Position numbers and translations under genes: made by a program | Shown: positions 9,538-18,706 of the stretch, in pieces | Layout of the letters: each line of letters begins with the position of its first letter | Position numbering within the stretch: position 1 is the stretch's first letter | Assembly (NCBI GenBank): GCA_023150915.1 | Contig: JAKLKA010000036.1 | Location: 1 to 55,981, forward strand | DNA: 55,981 bases | From: Polyangiaceae bacterium | GTDB lineage: Bacteria > Myxococcota_A > Polyangia > Polyangiales > Polyangiaceae | Direction of reading: 5' to 3' | The notes under the pieces: generated by a model | Databases searched by the model: none | What the model saw: only the letters and a program-made list of their open reading frames with translations | Told to the model about the DNA's origin: nothing

Positions 9538-10788
9538 TCAGCAGCCTTGGAGCCCGGAGTCGCGATCGAGCCCTTGCCAGTAGCGCGGGAGGCGGCCCGA
9601 GACGCGGGCGGCCAGCGTGGTCTCCCACCGCGCCTCGAGGGCCGCCGCCGCTGCGAAGGCCTCGTCGGGCTCGGCCGCGAGGTGATCGCGTTCGAAGGCA
9701 TCGCGCTCCGGGGCGATCAGCGCCAGCGCCGCGGCCAGATCTCGAAGCGCGATTCGATGCAGCCGCTCGTGGCGCCACCACAGCGTCGTCGGATCGAAGC
9801 GACCGGTGGGCGAGCCGATCGGGGGCAGCGCGCGCCCGAGCTGGACCGGCTTGAACAACGAGAGGCACGCTGCCGAGGTCGCGGTGACGAACACCCGAGA
9901 GGTCGCGGACAGCTCTGCCACCAACGAGCCGACGGTCTGCCCGTGCGCGCGCGTGGGCAAAGCGCCGGCGTGCGCGCACACCGTCTGGCGCAGCTCGCGA
10001 TGCGCGCGCGCGGGACGATCGGGCGAGCCGTGCTGACGCAGCGTCGCCATGCCCCGCAAGAGCGAGGGCGGGTGCGCGCCGAGAAACCCCTCGCTGCACG
10101 CGCGCCGCCGGGCGGCGGCCGCGGCCAGCGTGATCGGCGCGTCGCCGAACGTCCGGGCGAAATCGACCCGGGTTTTGCCGGGATCCAGCCGATAGTCGCG
10201 AGCCTTGGCCGCGAGCCCGTCGCAGGCCAGCTCCCAGTCGTCACCGAGCGTGAGCCCGTTGGAGATCGCTCGCACTCCGACCACGCGTTTGGCGACCCAG
10301 GCGCGAGCCGCGCTCTCGAGCACCCAGGCTTGCTCGGGGTCGGCGATCAAGAAGCTGTTGTGATAGCGAAACGACGCGCGCTGCCCGGCGGCGCCGCCCT
10401 GGCCGTGGGTCTCGATCAGCTCACCGATCAGCCGCACGGCTGGGTGCGCCGAGGTCGCCCGCTCGAGTGCCAGCCGCACCAGGTCCATGCCGGTGAGCCC
10501 CGAGGCGGCGTGCGGCGCACGGGTGAACACCGCCTCGTTGCCGATCGCCACGCCCGCGTCGTTCACGCCCATCTCGGCGCCCCACATCCAGTAGGGTCGG
10601 CAGAGCAGCGCGGCGCGGGTGAGCGGGGCCGCCGGCACGTCCGCGAAAGTGCAGTGCGTGATCGCCTCGGTGCGCGCCGGCCCAAGCTCCACCGCCTGCG
10701 CTTCGCCGGGCTCGCGATCGCTGTTCTTCCCGAACAGCATGCGGCCGTTTTCGGAGGCCTCGGGCGTGGCTACGAAGGTGTCGCACAT
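9538..10788 (-). CDS. C69-family dipeptidase (secernin-like)
   Basis: 416 residues from ATG 10788. The protein starts MCDTFVA: Cys2 is the N-terminal nucleophile of C69/secernin Ntn hydrolases, so only the initiator Met must be removed for activation. Further family segments are FGKNSDREPGEAQAV, the PYWMWGAEMGVNDAGVAIGNEA region and SFLIADPEQAWVLE. C69 enzymes cleave dipeptides or amide bonds. There is no signal peptide, so it is cytoplasmic. The start codon lies only about 40 bases from the divergent rrf2 start, so the two may share a control region. The C-terminal 150 residues are helical and less typical. Substrate is unknown. Confidence 0.85.
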   Translation of the reverse strand: MCDTFVATPEASENGRMLFGKNSDREPGEAQAVELGPARTEAITHCTFADVPAAPLTRAALLCRPYWMWGAEMGVNDAGVAIGNEAVFTRAPHAASGLTGMDLVRLALERATSAHPAVRLIGELIETHGQGGAAGQRASFRYHNSFLIADPEQAWVLESAARAWVAKRVVGVRAISNGLTLGDDWELACDGLAAKARDYRLDPGKTRVDFARTFGDAPITLAAAAARRRACSEGFLGAHPPSLLRGMATLRQHGSPDRPARAHRELRQTVCAHAGALPTRAHGQTVGSLVAELSATSRVFVTATSAACLSLFKPVQLGRALPPIGSPTGRFDPTTLWWRHERLHRIALRDLAAALALIAPERDAFERDHLAAEPDEAFAAAAALEARWETTLAARVSGRLPRYWQGLDRDSGLQGC

Positions 10789-10830
10789 GGGTTCTTGACA
10801 AATCCGATGCGTGAATGCACAAAACGGCTC
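10789..10830. promoter_or_regulatory. Divergent control region between the dipeptidase and the rrf2-cys operon
   Basis: This 42-base gap contains TTGACA (10795-10800), a perfect -35 for the operon; 17 bases on lies CACAAA, a poor -10. GTGAATGCAC (10811-10820) is a short imperfect dyad over the expected -10, where an autoregulating Rrf2 protein could bind. The AT-rich character stands out from the surroundings. Confidence 0.45.
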
Positions 10831-11295
10831 GTGAAGCTGTCGAACAAGGGCCGATACGCCGTTCGGGCGCTGTTCGACATCGCCTTCTACAACGACGGCC
10901 GGCCCACCCAGGTCAAGGACATCGCGGAGCGTCAGGGCATTCCCCCGCGGTTTCTGGAGCAGATCTTCCAGGACCTGAAGCGCGCCAACATCGTCGGCAG
11001 CAAGCGCGGGCCCCAGGGCGGGTACAGCCTGGCCCGGCGCGCGGCCGAGATCCGGCTGGGCGACGTGGTGCGCGCGCTCGAGGGGCCGATCACGCTCGGC
11101 GACAAGGCCGAGCCCGGGGCGCGGCGCGGCAAGATCGGGGCGGACGGCCGCAGCGTCACCGACGCCGTCTTCCGCGATCTGTCCCAGCGCATCGAGGCCT
11201 GCTTCGACGCGGTGACCATCGCCGACATCTGTGGCCGAGCCGACGAGCTCGGCATTCACCGCCCTCGCGGGCAGCGCTACGTCTATGTCATCTGA
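10831..11295 (+). CDS. Rrf2-family regulator (CymR-like), predicted CysK-binding tail
   Basis: 154 residues from GTG 10831, which gives the family start MKLSNKGRYAVRAL; an in-frame ATG at 10807 would add eight residues. The winged helix-turn-helix (about 1-70) includes the wing GSKRGPQGGYSLAR. The three-Cys iron-sulfur loop of IscR is absent; only two Cys remain, near residues 124 and 134. This resembles CymR, which in Bacillus controls cysteine metabolism in complex with CysK. The C-terminus reads RGQRYVYVI; a terminal Ile after a Tyr/Val stretch is the feature by which serine acetyltransferase tails insert into the CysK active site. The stop overlaps the cysK start region by 11 bases. It probably represses or activates this operon in response to cysteine precursor levels. 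Confidence 0.88.
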   Translation: MKLSNKGRYAVRALFDIAFYNDGRPTQVKDIAERQGIPPRFLEQIFQDLKRANIVGSKRGPQGGYSLARRAAEIRLGDVVRALEGPITLGDKAEPGARRGKIGADGRSVTDAVFRDLSQRIEACFDAVTIADICGRADELGIHRPRGQRYVYVI

Positions 11296-12250
11296 CGGCC
11301 TGCCCCCCCTGCCCGCGCACCCCTGCGTCTACGGCAGCGTCCTCGAGCTGATCGGCGACACGCCGCTGGTCGAGATCGCCAAACTCGGGCGGGGCGCACC
11401 CCGCGGGCGCGTGCTCGCCAAGATGGAGCACATCAACCCCGGCGGCTCGGTGAAGGATCGGATCTGCCTGGCGATGATCGAGCGCGCCGAGCGAGAGGGG
11501 AAGCTGGGGCCGGGCGGCACGGTGATCGAGCCGACCAGCGGCAACACCGGCATCGGCCTGGCGCTGGTGGCCCGCCAGCGGGGCTATCGCTGCATCTTGA
11601 CCATGCCCGAGAGCATGAGCCTGGAGCGGCGACAGTTGCTCGCGGCGCTGGGCGCCGACGTTCGCCTCACGCCCGAGGCAGACCAGATGGACGGCGCCAT
11701 CGCCCTGGCTCGAGAGCTGGCCGCCGCCACGCCCGGTGCGTTCATGCCGCAGCAGTTCGAGAACCAGGCCAACCCCGACGTGCACTACGGCGACACCTTC
11801 CGCGAGATCGTGCACGCCCTGGGCTCCGAGCCGGTGCACGCGTTCGTGGCGGCGGTCGGCACCGGCGGCACGGTGAGCGGCGTGGGTCGCGCGCTGTCGG
11901 AGCGCTTCGCCGGCTGCCGCGTGATCGCCGTCGAGCCCGAGAGCTCGGCCACGCTCTCGCGCGGCGAGAAGGGCCCCAGCAAGATCCAGGGGATCGCGGC
12001 GGGGTTCGTGCCGAAGAACTACGATCCGTCGGTTCCCCACCAGGTGCGCACCGTGTCCGACGAGCAGGCCCACCGGGTCAAGCGCGAGCTGGGCCTTCGC
12101 GAAGGCCTGCTGGTGGGGCTCAGCGCCGGTGCCAACGTCTCCGTCGCGCTCGACGTGGCGCGGGAGCTCGGGCCCGGAAAGAACGTGGTCACCGTGCTGT
12201 GCGACACGGGCGAACGCTACTTCAGCCTCGATGAATACTTTCAGGACTGA
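11285..12250 (+). CDS. cysK: Cysteine synthase (O-acetylserine sulfhydrylase)
   Basis: 321 residues from ATG 11285, overlapping rrf2 by 11 bases. A fold-type II PLP enzyme: Lys57 in NPGGSVKDR carries the cofactor, TSGNTG binds the substrate carboxylate, GTGGT holds the PLP phosphate, and the C-terminal GLSAGAN segment places the Ser that contacts the pyridine nitrogen. It condenses O-acetylserine with sulfide. The N-terminal 20 residues are longer than usual. A second PLP cysteine synthase (cysM, 13543-14493) in the same operon suggests a division of labour: free sulfide here, the carrier thiocarboxylate there. The gene overlaps the E1 gene by 20 bases. Confidence 0.93.
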   Translation: MSSDGLPPLPAHPCVYGSVLELIGDTPLVEIAKLGRGAPRGRVLAKMEHINPGGSVKDRICLAMIERAEREGKLGPGGTVIEPTSGNTGIGLALVARQRGYRCILTMPESMSLERRQLLAALGADVRLTPEADQMDGAIALARELAAATPGAFMPQQFENQANPDVHYGDTFREIVHALGSEPVHAFVAAVGTGGTVSGVGRALSERFAGCRVIAVEPESSATLSRGEKGPSKIQGIAAGFVPKNYDPSVPHQVRTVSDEQAHRVKRELGLREGLLVGLSAGANVSVALDVARELGPGKNVVTVLCDTGERYFSLDEYFQD

Positions 12251-12980
12251 CCCGCAGCGGCTCGCCCAGAAGAGCGCCTTGGTCGTCGGTGTCGGCGGCC
12301 TGGGGTGCCCTGCGGCGTTGGCCCTGGTGCGCGCGGGCGTCGGCCGAGTGGTGCTCTGCGACGACGATCGGGTCGAGGCCGCCAATCTGCACCGTCAGAT
12401 CTTGTTCGACGAGCGCGACGTGGGGCGCGACAAGTTGGACGCCGCCTTCGACACGCTGCGGGCCCGCGGCGGCACCGCGCGCGGCCTCGAGCGGGTTCAC
12501 GGGCGCCTCTTGCCCGACACGGCCCGCGCGCTGGTTCAGGGCGTGGACGTGGTGCTCGAGGGGTCGGACAATTTCGCCACCAAGTTCTTGGCGGCAGACG
12601 CCTGTCACCTCGAGCAGCGGGCCGTGGTGCACGGCGCCGCCATTCGCTGGCACGGCACCGCCTGGCTGGTGCCACCGGGCGGCGCCCCCTGCTATCGCTG
12701 CCTGTTCGAAGACGTGCCGATGGGGGCCCAAGCGGGCTGCTCCGAGGCCGGCGTGATGGGCCCGGTGGTGGGCGTGGTGGGGGCGCTGATGGCCGATCTG
12801 GCGCTCCGCTGGCTGACCGGTGACACGAGCGCGGTGGGCAGCATCTGGAGCTACGACGGCAAGCGGGACCGGTTGCGCGCCAGCGCGGTGCCCGCGCGCC
12901 CCGCGTGCCCGCTCTGCGGGCAGCGGCAGATCGCGGAATTGATCGAATCAGCGTACGTATCTGGCATCTGCACGACCTGA
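12231..12980 (+). CDS. E1-like adenylyltransferase (ThiF/MoeB/HesA family) lacking the N-terminal Arg-Gln helix
   Basis: 249 residues from ATG 12231 inside the end of cysK. It has the Rossmann nucleotide motif GVGGLG (20-25), the acidic turn CDDDRVE (43-49), Arg55 in NLHRQ, Lys68, Asp113 in EGSDN, two zinc Cys pairs (Cys154/157 CYRC and Cys226/229 CPLC) and Cys170 in CSEAGVMGP, where ThiF/MoeB relatives keep a conserved Cys. E1-like enzymes adenylate the C-terminal Gly of a ubiquitin-fold sulfur carrier, here the CysO-type protein encoded next. MoeB and ThiF begin with about 30 residues bearing RQ, whose Arg enters the partner's ATP site; this protein has only 14 residues before the first strand. 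Upstream sequence in frame is cysK shadow, so the absence is not a start-site error. There is no rhodanese domain. Confidence 0.92.
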   Translation: MNTFRTDPQRLAQKSALVVGVGGLGCPAALALVRAGVGRVVLCDDDRVEAANLHRQILFDERDVGRDKLDAAFDTLRARGGTARGLERVHGRLLPDTARALVQGVDVVLEGSDNFATKFLAADACHLEQRAVVHGAAIRWHGTAWLVPPGGAPCYRCLFEDVPMGAQAGCSEAGVMGPVVGVVGALMADLALRWLTGDTSAVGSIWSYDGKRDRLRASAVPARPACPLCGQRQIAELIESAYVSGICTT

Positions 12981-12992
12981 GAGGAGACCATC

Positions 12993-13265
12993 ATGGAGGT
13001 AACGGTTCGGATCCCCACCCCCCTGCGCTCGCTGACGGGCGGTGAAGAGGCAGTCAAGGTGACCGGCGCCACGGTGCGCGCCGTGATCGACGGCCTGGAG
13101 AAGGCGCACCCCGGCATGAAGGACCGGCTCTTGGACGACAAGGGCGTGCGGCGGTTCGTGAACATCTACGTGGGCGAAGAGGACATTCGCTTCCTCGACG
13201 GGCTCGAGACCGCGCTCGAGAACGGACAGGAGATCAGCATCGTTCCCGCGATCGCAGGGGGCTGA
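12993..13265 (+). CDS. CysO/ThiS/MoaD-type sulfur-carrier protein
   Basis: 90 residues of beta-grasp fold ending in the diagnostic Gly-Gly (VPAIAGG), where a thiocarboxylate is formed. PTPLRSLTGG and EISIVPAIAGG are the first and last strand regions as in MoaD and CysO. ATG 12993 is preceded by GAGGAG at six bases. Placement between an E1 and cysM/JAMM genes points to CysO: the E1 adenylates the C-terminus, sulfide replaces AMP, CysM uses the thiocarboxylate and the JAMM protease clips the product. A MoaD role in molybdopterin synthesis is unlikely because no moaE or other cofactor genes are near. Confidence 0.9.
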   Translation: MEVTVRIPTPLRSLTGGEEAVKVTGATVRAVIDGLEKAHPGMKDRLLDDKGVRRFVNIYVGEEDIRFLDGLETALENGQEISIVPAIAGG

Positions 13266-13267
13266 CC

Positions 13268-13546
13268 ATGAGCTCGCGCCAGCTGCTCTTGCCCGAGGTG
13301 GGCCCCGCGGGGCAGGCCAAGATCCAGGCCCTGCCTTGCGAGGTTCGGGGCTCCGACGGCGCGATCATCGAGGCCGAGTACCTGCACCGCGCGGGCGTGG
13401 AGCGGCTCGAGCTGCTCCCGGGGCGCGAGCCCGAGCCGTTCGCTCACGAGGCCGCGTTCCGCTTCGCGGCCTCGCGCCGGGTGGCGGCGGGGGCGTGGCG
13501 CGCGCTCCGCAAGATCCGGCGCGCGCTGGAGCTGGAGGGCGCATGA
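13268..13546 (+). CDS. Truncated E1-like protein (Arg-Gln helix plus degenerate Rossmann unit), putative E1 partner
   Basis: 92 residues. It opens MSSRQLLLPEVGPAGQAKIQ, almost exactly the start of MoeB/ThiF proteins, with Arg4-Gln5 at the place of MoeB Arg14-Gln15. The next stretch still follows the first Rossmann beta-alpha-beta (LPCEVRGSDGAIIEAEYL, then HRAGVERLELLPG), but the GxGGxG loop is gone and cannot bind ATP. After about residue 52 it leaves the family and ends in a basic helix (RVAAGAWRALRKIRRALE). It lies two bases after the carrier gene and overlaps cysM by ATGA, with its own GGGGG ribosome site, so it is a maintained gene. I infer a pseudo-E1 that donates the Arg finger missing from the E1 at 12231-12980. 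Confidence 0.8.
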   Translation: MSSRQLLLPEVGPAGQAKIQALPCEVRGSDGAIIEAEYLHRAGVERLELLPGREPEPFAHEAAFRFAASRRVAAGAWRALRKIRRALELEGA

Positions 13547-14493
13547 GCGCGCTCTTGCGCCGTGCACGGCTGCTGCCCAGCGTGATCGACGCCGTGGGAA
13601 ACACGCCCCTGGTTCGCTTGCGCCACGTGAGCCAGAGCGCGCCCAGCGTCGAGGTCTACGTGAAGCTCGAGTATCTGAACCCCGGCGGCTCGGTGAAAGA
13701 CCGGCCGGCGCTTCGGATCGTGCAAGACGCCATCGCGAACGGCCGGCTCACGCCGGAAAAGACCCTGATCGACGCAACCAGCGGCAACACCGGCGTGGCC
13801 TACGCCATGGTCGGCGCGGCGCTGGGGTTTCGCGTGGCGCTGGTCATGCCCGCCAACGTCAGCAAGGCGCGCAAGGACATCACCCAGGCCTACGGCGCCC
13901 AGCTGATCGCCTCGAGCCCGATGGAGGGCTCGGACGGCGCCATCCGGGTGGTGCGTGAGCGCGTGGCGAGCGAGCCGGAGAAGTATTTCTACGCCGATCA
14001 GTACGCAAACCCGTCGAACCCCCTCGCCCACTATCACGGCACCGGCGCCGAGATCCTGGACGCCCTGGGCGACCGCCTCACCCACTTCGTCACCGGGCTG
14101 GGGACCAGCGGCACCATGATGGGCACCACCCGGCGGCTGCACGAGCACCCGCGGAAGATCCACTGCGTGGCCGTGGAGCCGGCGGAAGCGTTGCACGGGC
14201 TCGAGGGCATGAAGCACATGGCGTCCAGCATCGTGCCCGAGATCTTCGACCCCGGCGTGCCGGACGAGATCTTGCCGGTGTCCACCGACGACGGCTGGGA
14301 CATGGCAGAGCGGGTCGCGGAACACGAGGGGCTGTTCGTCGGCCACTCGACGGGCGCCAACATCTTCGGCGCGGTGAAGGTGGCCGAGCGCCTCCACGCG
14401 GCGGGTCGCGGCGGGTGCGTGGTCACCATTGCCTGTGACCGCGGCGACCGCTACTTCGCGCCGCTTCGCTGGGAAAGAAGGTACACGTGGTGA
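13543..14493 (+). CDS. cysM: CysM-type cysteine synthase (carrier-thiocarboxylate-dependent)
   Basis: 316 residues from ATG 13543 (GGAGGG upstream). A PLP fold-type II enzyme: Lys52 in NPGGSVKDR, TSGNTG, GLGTSGT and, near the end, GHSTGAN. The segment with EGMKHM and IVPEIFDP resembles mycobacterial CysM, which uses O-phosphoserine and CysO thiocarboxylate rather than O-acetylserine and sulfide. Substrate choice cannot be proven by eye, but operon company (carrier, E1, JAMM) favours it. It overlaps the pseudo-E1 by four bases and the JAMM gene by seven, so expression should be tightly coupled. Confidence 0.9.
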   Translation: MSALLRRARLLPSVIDAVGNTPLVRLRHVSQSAPSVEVYVKLEYLNPGGSVKDRPALRIVQDAIANGRLTPEKTLIDATSGNTGVAYAMVGAALGFRVALVMPANVSKARKDITQAYGAQLIASSPMEGSDGAIRVVRERVASEPEKYFYADQYANPSNPLAHYHGTGAEILDALGDRLTHFVTGLGTSGTMMGTTRRLHEHPRKIHCVAVEPAEALHGLEGMKHMASSIVPEIFDPGVPDEILPVSTDDGWDMAERVAEHEGLFVGHSTGANIFGAVKVAERLHAAGRGGCVVTIACDRGDRYFAPLRWERRYTW

Positions 14494-14999
14494 CCCCGCC
14501 CTGGGTGAGCGGCGGCCTTCGCATCCCGGCGGCGGTGCTGGCCGAGGTCGAGCGGGCGGCCCGCGCGGCCTACGGGCGCGACGAAGAGGCCTGCGGATAT
14601 CTGGAGGGCCCGCTCGCCGACCCGCTGGCCGTGGACCGGGCGGTGGAGCTGGAGAACCTGGCGAACAAGTACCACGCGGTCGATCCCCAGGGGCACCCGC
14701 GCACCGGGCGCGAATACTTCAAGATCAACTCGCTCAAGTTCGAGAAGGCGATCCTGCAGGCCGCCGAGCACGCCCGTGCCGTGAAGGTGTTCTTCCACTC
14801 GCACCTGGATTGCGGCGCTTATTTCAGCACGGAAGACGCCGCCAGCATGACCATGGGCGACACCGGCGCGCCGGCGTATGCGCTGGCCTACCTGGTGACC
14901 GCGGTCGACCGCGGCGAGGTCACTGCCCACCGCTTGTTCGTCTGGCACGCCGCCGACCGGGGCTTCGTCGAGGCGCCGTTCGTGATCGACGAGGCGTGA
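14487..14999 (+). CDS. JAMM/Mov34 metalloprotease (Mec+-like), releases cysteine from the carrier
   Basis: 170 residues from GTG 14487 (a second GTG follows at 14490; GAAGG upstream). A JAMM domain: Glu34 in DEEACGYLEG, then HSHLDCGAYFSTED giving His104, His106, Ser114 and Asp117, the HxHx7Sx2D zinc site. In mycobacteria the relative Mec+ hydrolyses the CysO-cysteine adduct, regenerating CysO-GlyGly and freeing cysteine. The operon here reproduces that set. It overlaps cysM, and its stop overlaps the next start (TGATG). Length is close to the stand-alone bacterial JAMM proteins. Confidence 0.9.
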   Translation: MVTPPWVSGGLRIPAAVLAEVERAARAAYGRDEEACGYLEGPLADPLAVDRAVELENLANKYHAVDPQGHPRTGREYFKINSLKFEKAILQAAEHARAVKVFFHSHLDCGAYFSTEDAASMTMGDTGAPAYALAYLVTAVDRGEVTAHRLFVWHAADRGFVEAPFVIDEA

Positions 15000-16279
15000 T
15001 GGCGCGGCTCGGGGCAGCGCTGATCGCCGCGGCGTGCGCGCTATGGGCGGCGCCCGCCCGCGCGGATCTGGATCGCGACGTGCGCGATCTGGGGGCGGCC
15101 TTCGAGAAGTCGGGAGCCGTGCGGCGGCTGCCGGCGCGCTTCGTCGAACGCGGCGGGCTCCGGCCGCTGCTCTTGCCGGGCGAGTGGCTCGATCCGTTGA
15201 AAGACGACTGCATCACGGTGGTGGTGCTGGGCTCGAGCTCGTCCACCTTCGTGCTCCGCTTCTTGCCCACCAGCGACGCGCTGACCTGGCCCCGCGGAGA
15301 GAACCCCGAGCTGAGCATCGCCGGGGGCGCCCAGCTGGTGCGCTGCGGGATCCGCAAGGCCATGCTCTCGCGCCTGGCGCTCGAGATCCGCTCGCCGCGG
15401 GGCGTGATCGAGGTGCTGGTGGCCCGGGGGCCGCGGCCCTTTCCGCCGTTGACCCGGGTGCTGCCCGCGCGCTCGCCGGGCGCTCTGGGCCCGCCGGCCA
15501 CGGCCGGTCCGCCGGCGCGCGCGGAACCGATCGAGGGGCGCCTGCGTGCGCACACCGCGCGGGCGCGTCGTGACGGGGCAGCCGCCGTGGCCAAGCGCGA
15601 CATGACGGCCGACGCCGATGGTCGTGGGCGGGCGCTGTTCGAGCTCGTGCCGGGCTGTCATCGCCTGACGCTGCTCGGCGCCGCGGGTGCCAGCCTGCCC
15701 ACCGATCTGGATGCCGATCTGATGCTGGGGGGCGATCCCGAGCCGGCGGCCAGCGATCGTTCGGAGGCCACGGACGCGATGGTCTTTGCCTGCGTGGGCG
15801 ACAAGACGATCGGTACCCTGAGCTATCGCGGGGCCACGCCCCAGAGCAGCGTCACGCTCCTGGCCGAGCACTACCCGCTGGCCGAGGCGCTGCCCGAGCG
15901 CTGGACTGCGGACGAGCGCGCTCGAGTGAGCCACGTCTTGTGGCAGCACAAGAGCCCGCGCGCGCTCGCCCCCGTGGCCACCGCCCGGGGCGTTTCCGGC
16001 GTGACCTTGATGCCCCTCGAGCTCGATCCCAGCGGCTGCTACCTCGCCGTCATCGCTTCGGTGCGCGGGCAGAACGCCGGCGTCGCGCTCTCGGTCGAGC
16101 TCGGTGAGCGGCAAGCGCAGAACCACGGGGGCCCCGAGGGGCTGGGCACCGCGCTGGCCTTTTGCGCGCGCGGCGAGCCCGTGGCGCGCTTCAATCTCGA
16201 GGTTCGCGGCGACGGCGGCGCGTGGCTGTTTTCGCTGTTTCGCGCCGGCAAGACCGCCATCGGGGAGCAGGCCGAGTGA
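14999..16279 (+). CDS. Exported protein with three Cys-bracketed repeat domains
   Basis: 426 residues with a cleavable signal peptide (MARLGAALIAAACALWAAPARA). ATG overlaps the JAMM stop by one base. Three repeat units can be aligned by eye, each opening with a Cys followed by an alternating hydrophobic strand and closing with hydrophobic-x-Cys 42-45 residues later: Cys71-Cys116, Cys220-Cys265, Cys347-Cys389. Each is followed by a strand such as LALEIRSPRGVIEVLVA or FNLEVRGDGGAWLFSLF. Spacing suggests a disulfide-closed beta-sandwich, reminiscent of pre-peptidase C-terminal domains, but I recognise no family. The next gene carries four more units. No catalytic motif is seen; a binding or scaffold role in the periplasm is plausible. 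Confidence 0.72.
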   Translation: MARLGAALIAAACALWAAPARADLDRDVRDLGAAFEKSGAVRRLPARFVERGGLRPLLLPGEWLDPLKDDCITVVVLGSSSSTFVLRFLPTSDALTWPRGENPELSIAGGAQLVRCGIRKAMLSRLALEIRSPRGVIEVLVARGPRPFPPLTRVLPARSPGALGPPATAGPPARAEPIEGRLRAHTARARRDGAAAVAKRDMTADADGRGRALFELVPGCHRLTLLGAAGASLPTDLDADLMLGGDPEPAASDRSEATDAMVFACVGDKTIGTLSYRGATPQSSVTLLAEHYPLAEALPERWTADERARVSHVLWQHKSPRALAPVATARGVSGVTLMPLELDPSGCYLAVIASVRGQNAGVALSVELGERQAQNHGGPEGLGTALAFCARGEPVARFNLEVRGDGGAWLFSLFRAGKTAIGEQAE

Positions 16280-17931
16280 AGGCGTGGCTTCTGGCGCTGG
16301 CCTGCGTGGGCTGCACCGGCTGGGTGGGTGGCCCGCGGCCGGCGGCCCTCGAGGCGCGCCCGACCCCGGGGCGCGTCGAGGGCGAGCGGTTCTTGCTCGC
16401 CGACGGCCGCCGCGCGCGCGACGCCGGCGCCAGCGAGCAGCGCGTGGTGGCAGCCGACGCGGGCGCCCCCGGCGACCGGATCTCGGGCTTCGTCAGCGTG
16501 CCCGCCCAGGCCTGCGCGCTGGTGATGGCGCGCGGCTCGCGCGAGATCGACGACGTCGATCTGTTCGCGTTCGGCGACGACGGCACGCTGCTGGGCGCCG
16601 ACGAGCGCCCGAACAAGGCCCCCACGCTGCTCTTGTGCCCACCGCACCCCGAGCGCATCTACGTCAGCGCCCGGATCGCCTCGGGCTTTGGCATCGTGGC
16701 GCTCGGCGTGCAGAGCGTCGCGGCGGCGGACGGCCCGAAGCTCGGCGCGCTGCTCGACGTTCCCGGGTTCGCGACTCGGGCCGACGTCGGCGCGGTCGCC
16801 GAGATCGAGCGCGCGCTGGGCGCCCATCGCCGCGGCATTGGCGGGCGCTGGCAAGAGCTACGCCGGGCGGCACTGCCGGTCGAGCCGGGCACGCCCAGCC
16901 TGATCTCGGCCGTGATCGAGCCCGGGCGCTGCCTGGACGCCTGGGTCACGCCGACCGAAGCCGTGTCGCACCTCGACGTGGCGCTGCTCGATGCCGACGG
17001 GCGTACGGCGGGGCGCGCCGTGTCCCACGGGCGCAGCCGATTCCTGGTGGCCTGCGCCGCCGACAAGACCGCGGTCACGCTGGAGGTGCGACCGCAGTCC
17101 GGGCGTGGCGTGGCGGTGGTCGTGCTCTCGCAGTCCAAAGACGGTGGGCGTGCAGAGCTCGGGGGGCGCATTCCGATCATCGAGCTGGGCGCCAGCCGGT
17201 CGCTGGACGAGGTGAAGACCGATCTGGCCGCTCGCCTCGACAAGGGTGACTACGACGCGCCCCGGTCGGCGCTGCGCGTCGATCTGCCGATCGCCGAGCG
17301 CACCAGCACCGATCTCGAGCTGGCGGCCGGGTGCACCCGTATCGACGTGCTGGGAGGCCGCCCGCTCGCCGGGGTCGAGGCGTGGCTGTGGGCGGGCGAA
17401 GCGCTGAGCGCCCACGACCGTGCCGCCAGTCACGCCACGCTGTTTGCGTGCGGCGCCGCCGGCAAGCGCCGTCTGGATCTGGAGGCCCTGGCGCGTCCGG
17501 GGCCCGTCGAGGTGCTGGCGCGGAAGCTGCGACAGGTGCCGCCGCTCTTCACGCAGCACCCGCTGGCCGCGGGGCGGTTGCTCGCGCGGGTGTTGGCGCG
17601 CGGCACGGCCCCGCGCTTCGATCAGCTGGGCGCACCGAAGGTCGTCACGCTCGGCGAGACCCGGCGCGTCGACTCGGATCTCTTGGTTCCGATCCAGCGC
17701 TGCGCAGACGTCGTGCTCGCACTCGGGCCGGGCGCTGCCGGTGCCGAAGTTCGGATCGTCGACAAGGCGACCGGCAAAGAGATCGAACGTGGGTTCGGCG
17801 GTCAGCACGCGGCGGCGCGCGCCTGCGCCGTCGATCGTCGTGCCAGCCTGGACGCGCGCGTCGAGCTCTCGGTTTCGAGTGGCCAGACCGACGGCCTGGT
17901 GCTCACGCGGCTGCTCGCGCCGACCGAGTGA
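16276..17931 (+). CDS. Lipoprotein with four Cys-bracketed repeat domains
   Basis: 551 residues from GTG 16276, overlapping the previous stop (GTGA). A short type II signal peptide ends at a lipobox (LACVGC, Cys13). Four units match those of the preceding protein: Cys80-Cys121, Cys219-Cys260, Cys353-Cys392 and Cys476-Cys517, spacings 39-41. Typical openings are QACALVMARG, GRCLDAWVTP, AGCTRIDVLG and QRCADVVLAL; typical closings LLLC, FLVAC, LFAC and ARAC, then a strand ending in a G-x-V-V-V-L-type segment. Units are separated by 90-100-residue helical or linker regions. The two genes clearly arose by duplication and are probably co-expressed as a periplasmic and lipid-anchored pair. Function is unknown. 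Confidence 0.72.
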   Translation: MKAWLLALACVGCTGWVGGPRPAALEARPTPGRVEGERFLLADGRRARDAGASEQRVVAADAGAPGDRISGFVSVPAQACALVMARGSREIDDVDLFAFGDDGTLLGADERPNKAPTLLLCPPHPERIYVSARIASGFGIVALGVQSVAAADGPKLGALLDVPGFATRADVGAVAEIERALGAHRRGIGGRWQELRRAALPVEPGTPSLISAVIEPGRCLDAWVTPTEAVSHLDVALLDADGRTAGRAVSHGRSRFLVACAADKTAVTLEVRPQSGRGVAVVVLSQSKDGGRAELGGRIPIIELGASRSLDEVKTDLAARLDKGDYDAPRSALRVDLPIAERTSTDLELAAGCTRIDVLGGRPLAGVEAWLWAGEALSAHDRAASHATLFACGAAGKRRLDLEALARPGPVEVLARKLRQVPPLFTQHPLAAGRLLARVLARGTAPRFDQLGAPKVVTLGETRRVDSDLLVPIQRCADVVLALGPGAAGAEVRIVDKATGKEIERGFGGQHAAARACAVDRRASLDARVELSVSSGQTDGLVLTRLLAPTE

Positions 17932-17934
17932 ATG

Positions 17935-17969
17935 CTGCATGATTCTAACGGTTTAGCCCGTTGATGCAG
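17935..17969 (+). terminator. Hairpin after the lipoprotein gene (possible terminator)
   Basis: CTGCAT (17935-17940) pairs with ATGCAG (17964-17969) around an inner AACGG / CCGTT stem, starting three bases after the stop codon. It has no T tract. It probably ends or protects the cys operon transcript. The remaining gap to 18118 holds the leader of the next gene and nothing else I can name. Confidence 0.4.
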
Positions 17970-18118
17970 GGTGCGACCCGGGTCTGCAGCGGACAGTGGC
18001 GTTTTGCGGAGCTTTCGGGCTACCCTGCGGCGCGCACAAGCAGTGCGGCCGTATTTAGAGCGGGTTCGGAACTGAATTAGCAGAGCGAAAGCGAACTGCG
18101 GAGAAGAGGAGCACACAG

Positions 18119-18583
18119 ATGATGGAGCAGCAGACCGGCATTCAGGCACAAGGTGGAGGCTACGGACCGCCTCCCGGCGGGTACGGTCCTCCGGGTGGTG
18201 CACCCGGTGGGTACGGCGCGCCTCCCGGGATGCCCGGTGCTCCGATGGGGCCGCCCGGCGGAATGCCGATGGCGCCGCCCGGTGGCGGCATGCCGCCCGG
18301 CATGGGTGGCGGTGGCGGCGCGCCGCCGGATCTCGAGGCGCACGTCAAGAAGTGGTTCACGCTGTCGATCGTCTCGATCTTCTGCGGCTGCGGTATGCTC
18401 GGCTTGATCAACGTGTGGATGGCCATGCAGGCCAAGGACGCGCTGGCCAAGGGTGACGCCGCCACGGCCGCTGACAAGATCAAGCTGGCACGCACGCTGT
18501 GCATCGTCGGCTACGTGATCTTCGGCCTGTATGTCCTGGGCGGCATCGCCTACGGCATCATGATGGCCGTTGCGCTGAGCTGA
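18119..18583 (+). CDS. CD225/dispanin-family membrane protein with Gly/Pro-rich N-terminus
   Basis: 154 residues; ATG 18119 or 18122 after GAAGAGGAGC. Residues 10-70 are a low-complexity Gly/Pro/Tyr/Met tail (repeats of GGYGPP and PPGGM). The C-terminal 85 residues form the two-helix CD225 unit: KKWFTLSIVSIFCGCGMLGLINVW, then a polar loop AKDALAKGDAATAADKIKLAR, then a second hydrophobic helix (given here only as segments). The Cys pair at the first helix edge is typical. Bacterial dispanins are uncharacterised; eukaryotic relatives (IFITM) alter membrane curvature and fusion. It has its own long leader and terminator, so it is monocistronic. Confidence 0.85.
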   Translation: MMEQQTGIQAQGGGYGPPPGGYGPPGGAPGGYGAPPGMPGAPMGPPGGMPMAPPGGGMPPGMGGGGGAPPDLEAHVKKWFTLSIVSIFCGCGMLGLINVWMAMQAKDALAKGDAATAADKIKLARTLCIVGYVIFGLYVLGGIAYGIMMAVALS

Positions 18584-18604
18584 TCGCTCACCGCCACTGA
18601 ATCA

Positions 18605-18639
18605 GGGCGCTGCCAGCGATGGCGGCGCCCTTTTTCTTT
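18605..18639 (+). terminator. Intrinsic terminator of the dispanin gene
   Basis: GGGCGCTGCC (18605-18614) pairs with GGCGGCGCCC (18621-18630) with one G-T pair and a six-base loop, followed by TTTTTCTTT. It starts 21 bases after the dispanin stop. Confidence 0.9.
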
Positions 18640-18706
18640 GGGCTGGCATTTTCCGCCGGCTCAGAAACACCTGCCAGATTGCCGCGACACGGGTACCCTC
18701 TCTGGT

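What the first reader, a model, noticed from the sequence alone, without database searches (positions are those of the whole stretch)
14999..17931. Seven copies of a cysteine-bracketed domain in two consecutive exported proteins
By counting, each unit has an opening Cys and a closing Cys 39-45 residues apart (71/116, 220/265, 347/389 in the first; 80/121, 219/260, 353/392, 476/517 in the second), similar strand patterns and a following LEVR-type strand. The regularity over two genes implies duplication of a disulfide-closed beta domain I cannot assign. Overlap of the first gene with the JAMM gene (TGATG) puts them at the end of the cysteine operon: exported Cys-rich proteins whose supply depends on cysteine.
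Basis: partly seen in the sequence, partly recalled or inferred. Interest (0 to 1): 0.55.

Follow-up and report, generated by a model that had tools for sequence, protein, structure and literature searches.

The report
Seven disulfide domains beside cysteine genes
Two neighbouring exported bacterial proteins are built from seven copies of one small, probably disulfide-locked domain, and across an order of myxobacteria they usually stay next to the genes of an unusual cysteine-making pathway, in some genomes even after most of that pathway has been lost, for reasons still untested.

Summary
Gene 1 (14999-16279) and gene 2 (16276-17931) carry three and four Cys-bracketed units at the stated positions. 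All 14 unit Cys are present in every aligned homologue that covers them (50 and 52 rows). Profile comparison groups six units even with Cys masked; 1a depends on its Cys. AlphaFold models (pLDDT 91.7, 89.8) show tandem jelly rolls like PPC/collagen-binding and GOLD domains, with the Cys at the start of strand 3 and end of strand 6 (1a by analogy), neighbours in that fold. No Pfam or NCBIfam family covers them. 'Cys-rich' is wrong (1.6-1.8%). The link to the cysteine cluster is real: 88 of 107 genomes of the order have a gene-2 relative within 20 kb of CysO or JAMM, in several arrangements. 'Supply of cysteine' is not supported: of 17 genomes without CysO and JAMM, nine keep moeB and a 92-codon gene directly before gene 1. 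That small gene resembles the N-terminal arm (with the arginine finger) missing from the cluster's MoeB: an apparently split E1-like enzyme. Likely role: a periplasmic or outer-membrane binding scaffold made with the sulfur regulon; function inferred, untested.

The parts
14999..16279 (+). gene 1: exported protein, 426 aa, N-terminal hydrophobic signal (by eye), three Cys-bracketed units
   Evidence: no Pfam/NCBIfam match, no consistent Pfam match in 26 homologues
15116..15430 (+). unit 1a (aa 40-144), C71/C116; weakest unit
   Evidence: strands; (links lost when Cys are masked)
15584..15874 (+). unit 1b (aa 196-292), C220/C265; conserved acidic D236, D238, D253, D259
   Evidence: VIA Z 10.1 to the TMED1 GOLD domain
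15971..16252 (+). unit 1c (aa 325-418), C347/C389
   Evidence: VIA Z 9.2 to ColG CBD 1nqj
16276..17931 (+). gene 2: exported lipoprotein-like protein, 551 aa, GTG start overlapping gene 1's stop, lipobox-position C13, four Cys-bracketed units
16441..16722 (+). unit 2a (aa 56-149), C80/C121; Ca-site-like D93, D95, D109, E110
   Evidence: VIA Z 10.4 to the Tk-SP C-terminal domain 3afg
16849..17136 (+). unit 2b (aa 192-287), C219/C260
   Evidence: VIA Z 9.3, rmsd 2.0 over 89 residues to a PPC domain, 5sv5
17263..17529 (+). unit 2c (aa 330-418), C353/C392
   Evidence: VIA Z 8.9 to p24delta1 GOLD 5azy
17638..17916 (+). unit 2d (aa 455-547), C476/C517
   Evidence: VIA Z 7.7 to supernatant protein factor 1o6u (weak)
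14487..14999 (+). JAMM peptidase (Mec+-like), directly upstream
   Evidence: PF14464 6.6e-8, over its cut-off
13543..14493 (+). cysM-like cysteine synthase
   Evidence: PF00291 6e-64; TIGR01138 9e-98 but under its cut-off
13268..13546 (+). orf92: 92-aa homologue of the N-terminal arm of MoeB/ThiF, nucleotide loop lost
   Evidence: the window's own copy alone is weak (TIGR02356 E 0.039), relatives reach 8.8e-8
12993..13265 (+). cysO-like ubiquitin-fold sulfur carrier
   Evidence: PF02597 5e-14; SAMP1 3e-15, just under its cut-off
12231..12980 (+). moeB, E1-like core lacking the N-terminal arm (start inferred at ATG 12231)
   Evidence: PF00899 4e-55 matched from profile position 15 only
11231..12250 (+). 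cysK (ORF as listed; the true start may be further in)
   Evidence: TIGR01139 3e-109, over its cut-off
10831..11295 (+). Rrf2-type regulator, start of the cluster
   Evidence: read from the ORF by likeness to L062's Rrf2 gene; not itself scanned

Best explanation
Genes 1 and 2 encode an exported two-protein scaffold. Gene 1 is a secreted or periplasmic protein of three tandem jelly-roll modules; gene 2 is a probable outer-membrane lipoprotein of four. Each module is a PPC/GOLD-like beta sandwich of about eight strands, locked by one disulfide between the start of strand 3 and the end of strand 6, and the modules arose by duplications older than the radiation of the family. Units 2a and 1b keep acidic residues at strands D and E where related domains bind calcium, so the array is probably calcium-stabilised as well. 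The pair is made together by translational coupling, as part of (or divergently from) the Rrf2-moeB-CysO-CysM-JAMM sulfur cluster, and so is probably controlled with sulfur or redox state. It most likely acts as a binding or structural scaffold in the periplasm or at the cell surface. Shown: homologous modules, invariant Cys, predicted fold, order-wide linkage, overlapping starts. Inferred: the disulfides, calcium, lipidation, co-regulation and the binding role.
For: Cys invariance. Unit homology with shuffled and Cys-masked comparisons. Models at pLDDT 91.7 and 89.8. Fold matches to PPC, ColG/ColH CBD, DeCLIC NTD and GOLD domains. Strand order A-H-C-F / B-G-D-E published for the DeCLIC lobes, putting strands 3 and 6 side by side (PMC12664993, passages). 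DeCLIC site 1 uses betaD-Asp and betaE-Asp-Asp; D93, D95 and D109 of unit 2a are acidic in 51 of 51 each and E110 in 49 of 52. Lipobox-position Cys in 50 of 52 (the other two lack that region), residue after it Asp in 0 of 50. Gene 1 to gene 2: 4-bp overlap in 28 of 43, within 60 bp in 40 of 43, with starts chosen by script. Linkage in 88 of 107 genomes, and 88 of 89 same-contig cases. Each of the family's seven unit positions forms its own clade, F1 0.94-1.00. Rrf2-family genes before the cluster (family F6 in 21 of the 75 stretches analysed) and next to gene 2 in Sorangium (Pfam-checked on L062 and L069).
Against: No direct functional evidence. The window's own lipobox (ACVG-C) fails both lipobox patterns used; 37 of 50 pass the relaxed one and 18 of 50 the strict one. 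Four named loci with several kb of flank (L072, L084, L099, L105) have none of the five cysteine-cluster genes sought; in G143 they are 387 kb apart. 32 genomes with JAMM and CysO have no gene-2 match at 1e-6, and seven more have only a weak one whose place one search does not list; of these, G073, G074 and G098 are placed, on other contigs than JAMM. Regulation by Rrf2 is not tested. Unit 1a has neither Cys-independent sequence support nor a fold match of its own in the rows shown. Divergent homologues depart from the pattern: one of 25 rows lacks C476 and one C517, and L161 and L162 have irregular spacings.
Confidence: 0.5

Rival explanations
1. The pair and the split E1-like enzyme (moeB core plus orf92) are one functional module: the cytoplasmic enzyme activates a carboxylate or sulfur carrier for a process whose outer part is the exported pair. 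CysO, CysM and JAMM are optional additions.
For: Of 17 genomes with a gene-2 relative but no CysO or JAMM at 1e-10, nine keep a 50-60% identical moeB directly upstream of gene 1, with orf92 between in all nine; in eight of them gene 2 follows on the same contig, in G109 it is on another. The linkage also survives inversions.
Against: A cytoplasmic enzyme and exported proteins have no obvious shared substrate. Seven of the 17 lack such a moeB and in G125 it is on another contig. L099 and L105 keep the pair without any of the sought cluster genes.
Confidence: 0.25
2. One reading: exported Cys-rich proteins placed in the cysteine operon because their synthesis needs cysteine.
For: Real linkage to the cysteine cluster; 6 and 8 conserved unit Cys.
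Against: Cys content 1.6-1.8% against a median of 1.27%; gene-2 relative retained without CysO and JAMM in 17 genomes.
Confidence: 0.08
3. Neighbourhood without function: the pair has simply stayed beside a slowly rearranging cluster and works elsewhere, for example as an adhesin or inhibitor.
For: Some genomes separate them (L105/G143, L072, L084, L099); gene 2 lies apart from gene 1 in Sorangium.
Against: Downstream neighbours change between subclades while the sulfur genes stay; orientation changes keep the linkage; reduced clusters keep moeB-orf92-gene 1.
Confidence: 0.17

Closest known systems
PPC domain (Pfam PF04151; ColG/ColH collagen-binding domain, Tk-SP C-terminal domain, 5sv5)
   Same: Same jelly-roll fold (Z 9.2-10.4 for units 1c, 2a, 2b); acidic residues at strands D/E in units 2a and 1b; a PF04151 match over cut-off in a relative (L183: 29.9 bits, cut-off 25.9) carries a Cys pair 45 apart and matches the unit profile.
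   Different: No Pfam match for either protein and no PPC among hits of 49 homologues; tandem arrays with no peptidase found; conserved strand 3-strand 6 Cys pair; profile similarity weak (best 2a, probability 40.6).
GOLD domain of p24/TMED proteins
   Same: Sandwich of eight strands with one disulfide; Z 10.1 (unit 1b) and 9.4 (2b) to TMED1.
   Different: TMED9 disulfide C49-C121 is 72 residues apart (PMC11414720, passages) against 39-45 here; models show no long helix after the modules; bacterial.
DeCLIC N-terminal domains NTD1/NTD2
   Same: Tandem jelly rolls in a periplasmic protein; Z 10.6 over two lobes, though rmsd 15.2.
   Different: Part of an ion channel; here free exported proteins.
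CysO-CysM-Mec+ type clusters (neighbourhood types 4c/4d of Iyer 2006, PMC1779556, passages)
   Same: ThiS/MoaD-like carrier, E1-like enzyme, JAB/JAMM peptidase and cysteine synthase.
   Different: Adds two exported tandem-domain proteins and a split E1-like enzyme; neither appears in the passages seen.

Membership tests
PPC (PF04151) | Pfam gathering score | tested here: not met
   0 families at E<=1 for either protein; no PPC among hits of 23 and 26 members
PPC (PF04151) | jelly-roll fold of about eight strands | tested here: met
   unit 1a not matched on its own in the rows shown
PPC (PF04151) | profile-level sequence similarity | tested here: inconclusive
   2a probability 40.6 against at most 0.5 in 20 shuffles, other units 0.2-6.2, all units joined 0.15; bridge L183
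PPC (PF04151) | sits C-terminal to a peptidase | tested here: not met
   no other domain found; models show the modules plus helices and linkers
GOLD (p24/TMED) | GOLD-type fold | tested here: met
   Z 10.1 and 9.4 to 7rrm
GOLD (p24/TMED) | GOLD disulfide position | tested here: inconclusive
   spacing differs (39-45 against 72); no residue-level structural alignment available
GOLD (p24/TMED) | coiled coil, membrane helix and cytosolic tail after the domain | tested here: not met
   both models end with strands of the last module and a short tail
Bacterial lipoprotein (gene 2) | lipobox before an invariant Cys | tested here: inconclusive
   Cys in 50 of 52; relaxed pattern 37 of 50, strict 18 of 50, window's own fails both
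CysO-CysM-Mec+ sulfur-carrier cysteine cluster | Ub-like carrier, E1-like enzyme, cysteine synthase and JAMM in one cluster | tested here: met
   ThiS, ThiF, PALP and Prok-JAB Pfam matches over cut-off
CysO-CysM-Mec+ sulfur-carrier cysteine cluster | CysM uses CysO thiocarboxylate | not testable with these tools
   needs enzymology

The most novel reading that the evidence does not exclude
The unit that selection keeps together is not the cysteine pathway but moeB-orf92-gene 1-gene 2 (with an Rrf2 gene in some): an E1-like adenylyltransferase split into a core and a separate 90-residue arginine-finger subunit, tied to an exported array of disulfide-locked jelly-roll modules. That would be a bacterial ubiquitin-like or sulfur-transfer system with an envelope arm, able to work without the CysO carrier and the JAMM peptidase.
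Probability: 0.22. Interest if true: 0.8.

Novelty: new variant of a known kind. Interest (0 to 1): 0.55.

Why it matters
An order-wide, unnamed pair of exported proteins is genetically tied to a ubiquitin-like sulfur-carrier system. That gives a concrete way to ask why such clusters carry envelope proteins. The split E1-like enzyme beside it is a simple test case for how heterodimeric E1 enzymes could arise. It also gives domain boundaries to proteins that no Pfam or NCBIfam model matched here.

Tried and rejected
Family searches: Pfam and NCBIfam on both proteins, and Pfam on 23 and 26 homologues, gave no consistent family. Profiles of both proteins against PDB sequences matched nothing at E<=5.

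Foldseek's top rows (Cry and Vip3 crystal proteins, neuropilin) have TM-scores of 0.21 or less by query length and rmsd over 12 A: generic stacking of beta sandwiches, not used. Rows for enterotoxin and haemagglutinin domains are read the same way.

Profile comparison of single units with a PPC set from relatives supports a link only for 2a. That set of 30 held two wrongly framed rows (L189, L193) that I left in. The 'all units' profile against PPC gave nothing.

Orthology of the three-unit partner outside the family with gene 1: not supported, as its units do not group with units 1a-1c. hhalign of orf92 with the cluster's moeB gave nothing, as expected if moeB lacks that segment; matches to other E1 families showed what it is. 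An all-against-all BLAST of raw ORFs timed out and was redone with filtered gene calls.

The first script to collect homologues misread minus-strand loci and was redone. In one search some best-domain coordinates for the orf92 profile fall on wrong parts of long open frames; seven reduced clusters were read by eye. The regex control looked for RQ only; seven full-length paralogues have RH there and three were not printed, so I judged those by eye and by the orf92 profile hits.

Literature: no paper held all of Sorangium, ubiquitin-like and cysteine biosynthesis and none held the lipoprotein-sorting terms. The rows listed (capped lists) show no title on this pair or on a split MoeB. I saw listings only, except passages of PMC1779556, PMC11414720, PMC12664993, PMC7527816, PMC13139853 and PMC12250964.
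Full report
Genes and setting. The window is contig 243 of an 8.0 Mb, 295-contig genome; its relatives with names are Polyangiaceae, Sorangium, Polyangium and other Myxococcota, mostly metagenome bins. Gene 1 runs 14999-16279 (426 aa) and gene 2 16276-17931 (551 aa, GTG start). Upstream on the same strand lie cysK, moeB (ThiF family), a CysO/SAMP-like carrier, a 92-codon gene, a cysM-like gene and a JAMM peptidase. Starts and stops overlap at JAMM/gene 1 and gene 1/gene 2. In the scan of 10500-18700 the only strong + strand terminator-like hairpin is at 18604-18631; a weak one (5 pairs) lies inside JAMM. One transcript through 17931 is therefore plausible but not shown.

Conservation. Among 59 genomes (own included) gene 1 has a match in 27 and gene 2 in 40. 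With profiles, gene 2 matches 134 of 183 genomes of the order and gene 1 106 of 183; of 377 genomes drawn from the phylum 59 match gene 2, all but five from the same order. The six gene-1 Cys are present in 50 of 50 sequences; in gene 2 seven unit Cys in 52 of 52 and C80 in 51 of 52, the exception truncated. In the earlier, more divergent set of 26, C476 and C517 are each missing in one of 25 rows. In ten four-unit relatives from other families the pairs are 35-41 residues apart, and each lies beside a three-unit protein.

Units. hhalign between unit profiles gives 97.2 (2b-2d), 96.8 (2a-2b), 96.0 (1b-2c), 94.6 (2c-2d), 86.5 (1c-2d) and lower; 10 of 21 pairs reach 50, and 105 shuffled controls reach at most 2.5. 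With Cys masked, six pairs stay above 20 and join 1b, 1c, 2a, 2b, 2c and 2d; 1a drops out. A tree of 122 sampled unit sequences of the family and 79 from other families puts each of the family's positions in its own clade (F1 0.94-1.00, support 0.82-0.999), so duplication came before the family radiated.

Fold. The models have pLDDT 91.7 and 89.8, pTM 0.69 and 0.72. In gene 2 each unit is a helix followed by about eight strands. The opening Cys lies at the start of strand 3 and the closing Cys at or just after the end of strand 6 in six units, and by analogy in 1a, whose strands are less regular (my reading of the DSSP strings against the Cys positions). In the related DeCLIC lobes the sheets are A-H-C-F and B-G-D-E (PMC12664993, passages), so strands 3 and 6 are neighbours and the Cys would face each other. 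VIA-align 2 matches: 2a to Tk-SP 3afg (Z 10.4, rmsd 2.5, 101 residues), 2b to PPC 5sv5 (Z 9.3, rmsd 2.0, 89) and ColG 1nqj (Z 9.9, rmsd 2.7, 91), 2c to p24 GOLD 5azy (Z 8.9, rmsd 2.6, 85), 2d to supernatant protein factor 1o6u (Z 7.7, rmsd 3.5, 98), 1b to TMED1 GOLD (Z 10.1, rmsd 2.6, 94), 1c to ColG 1nqj (Z 9.2, rmsd 2.9, 88). Z of 7 to 8 is common for such models, so 2d is weak; 1a has no match of its own in the rows shown. The TMED9 GOLD disulfide is 72 residues apart (PMC11414720, passages), so the Cys pair here is not the GOLD one by spacing.

Link to PPC. No Pfam PPC match was found for the two proteins or in 49 homologues scanned. A PF04151 search of 30 genomes gave, among 30 loci fetched, one domain (L183, 29.9 bits, cut-off 25.9) with a Cys pair at corresponding places; it matches the unit profile at 6.3e-12 and the gene 2 profile at 5.6e-9, in a search of those 30 sequences. 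I read the units as remote relatives of PPC, not as members.

Calcium. DeCLIC site 1 uses a betaD Asp and two betaE Asp, and Tk-SP has an overlapping site. Unit 2a has D93 and D95 at strand D and D109, E110 at the end of strand E, acidic in 51 of 51, 51 of 51, 51 of 51 and 49 of 52; unit 1b has D236, D238, D253, D259 (48 of 50, 46 of 50, 48 of 48, 48 of 50). Calcium binding is inference.

Export. Gene 2 has a Cys at the lipobox position in 50 of 52 homologues (the other two lack that region) and the next residue is Asp in none; that Asp marks inner-membrane retention is recalled, from E. coli. The window's own lipobox fails both patterns. Gene 1's signal was judged by eye.

Linkage. Of 54 named loci, 44 carry at least one of cysK, moeB, cysO, cysM, JAMM in the stretch fetched; of the other ten, L061, L077, L087, L103 and L108 are cut by contig ends close to the pair, L068 is a Sorangium contig without gene 1, and L072, L084, L099, L105 lack them over several kb. 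Over the order I compared places by hand-copied coordinates: of 124 listed genomes with a gene-2 relative (134 tallied), 107 have JAMM or CysO at 1e-10; 88 have it within 20 kb (88 of 89 on one contig, median 3.1 kb); 18 have it on another contig and one (G143) 387 kb away. Linked cases fall in families f1, f2, f3, f5, f6, f9, f10, f11; in f2, f3, f9 and most of f5 the linked hits are weak or partial, so relatives rather than proven orthologues. The script counted 39 genomes with JAMM and CysO but no listed gene-2 relative; seven of these (G055, G070, G072, G073, G074, G098, G182) do have a weak match's table, so 32 have none at 1e-6. G073, G074 and G098 are placed, on other contigs than JAMM.

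Arrangements. In several stretches from f5, f6, f10 and f11 the sulfur cluster is divergent from the pair, with a Ser/Thr kinase-family gene (L145, L149-L151, L157; Pfam checked on L145 and L157) or a GH15-family gene (L147, L148, L152, L156; Pfam checked on L147) near the pair; kinases of this kind are common, so that family may be loose. In Sorangium and Polyangium a bifunctional APS kinase/ATP sulfurylase gene lies between JAMM and gene 1 (Pfam checked on L069). Downstream neighbours differ by subclade.

Reduced clusters. Seventeen genomes have the gene-2 relative but neither JAMM nor CysO. All 17 have a CysK/CysM homologue, at 33-47% identity to the window's CysM and on other contigs than the pair. 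Nine (G013, G026, G027, G109, G110, G115, G139, G162, G166; seven of them 90% complete or more) keep a 50-60% identical moeB just upstream of gene 1; in all nine an orf92 sequence lies between, in G027 in one open frame with gene 1. In G109 gene 2 is on another contig. So the pair's partner by retention is moeB-orf92, not the CysO-CysM-JAMM route.

Split E1. The window's moeB matches Pfam ThiF only from position 15. Of 42 cluster moeB frames, 36 have a readable nucleotide loop and none of these has the RQ arm before it, nor an RH one by eye. orf92 matches that part: of 15 members chosen from the 45 frames found in 75 stretches, 13 hit TIGR02356 (best 8.8e-8) and 7 hit Pfam ThiF (best 1.1e-4); for the window's copy the match runs from profile position 2 or 3 to about 50 but is weak alone (0.039 and 0.073). 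The profile hits Uba4 structures at 6.5e-5. orf92 has lost the GxGGxG loop but keeps R4, Q5, G12, G15, Q16 in 15 of 15. The orf92 profile also hits the N-terminus of the other MoeB-like proteins in 13 of 13 stretches fetched, of 15 such places listed. In ThiF and MoeB this segment carries an arginine finger (Arg11, Arg14) that reaches the neighbouring subunit's nucleotide but is not essential (PMC13139853, passages). I infer a heteromeric E1-like enzyme.

Verdict. Interest 0.55.

Noticed in passing
window 12231-12980 and 13268-13546: Apparently split E1-like enzyme: cluster moeB lacks the N-terminal arginine-finger arm, and a separate 92-aa gene carries a homologue of that arm with the nucleotide loop lost; the small gene was found in 45 of 75 stretches examined, in several families.
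   Followed up: yes
L145, L149, L150, L151, L157 (Ser/Thr kinase family); L147, L148, L152, L156 (GH15 family): In other families of the order the pair sits near a Ser/Thr kinase gene or a glycoside hydrolase 15 gene, often with the sulfur cluster divergent.
   Followed up: partly
L069, L074, L075, L078, L081, L083, L101, L076, L093, L061: An APS kinase/ATP sulfurylase gene family lies between JAMM and gene 1 or next to the pair (Pfam checked on L069's copy only).
   Followed up: partly
L183 (G009 contig 52): A PF04151 match over the Pfam cut-off in a 192-codon frame that has the same kind of Cys pair and matches the unit profile; a bridge to PPC.
   Followed up: partly
L104 7334-8995: orf92 and gene 1 share one open frame without a stop between them, so they may be fused or gene 1 may start inside.
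   Followed up: no
window 18119-18583: Proline/glycine-rich N-terminus with a CD225 (interferon-induced transmembrane) type domain, PF04505 6e-8; conserved with an FG-GAP/CARDB protein downstream in L060.
   Followed up: no
L160 (G178 contig 427, 4068 bases): A close gene 2 homologue (2e-190) on a tiny contig of a genome from another family: probable contamination or recent transfer.
   Followed up: no
L157 (G080 contig 12): Several tandem-unit genes in a row beside the sulfur cluster, suggesting lineage-specific expansion.
   Followed up: no
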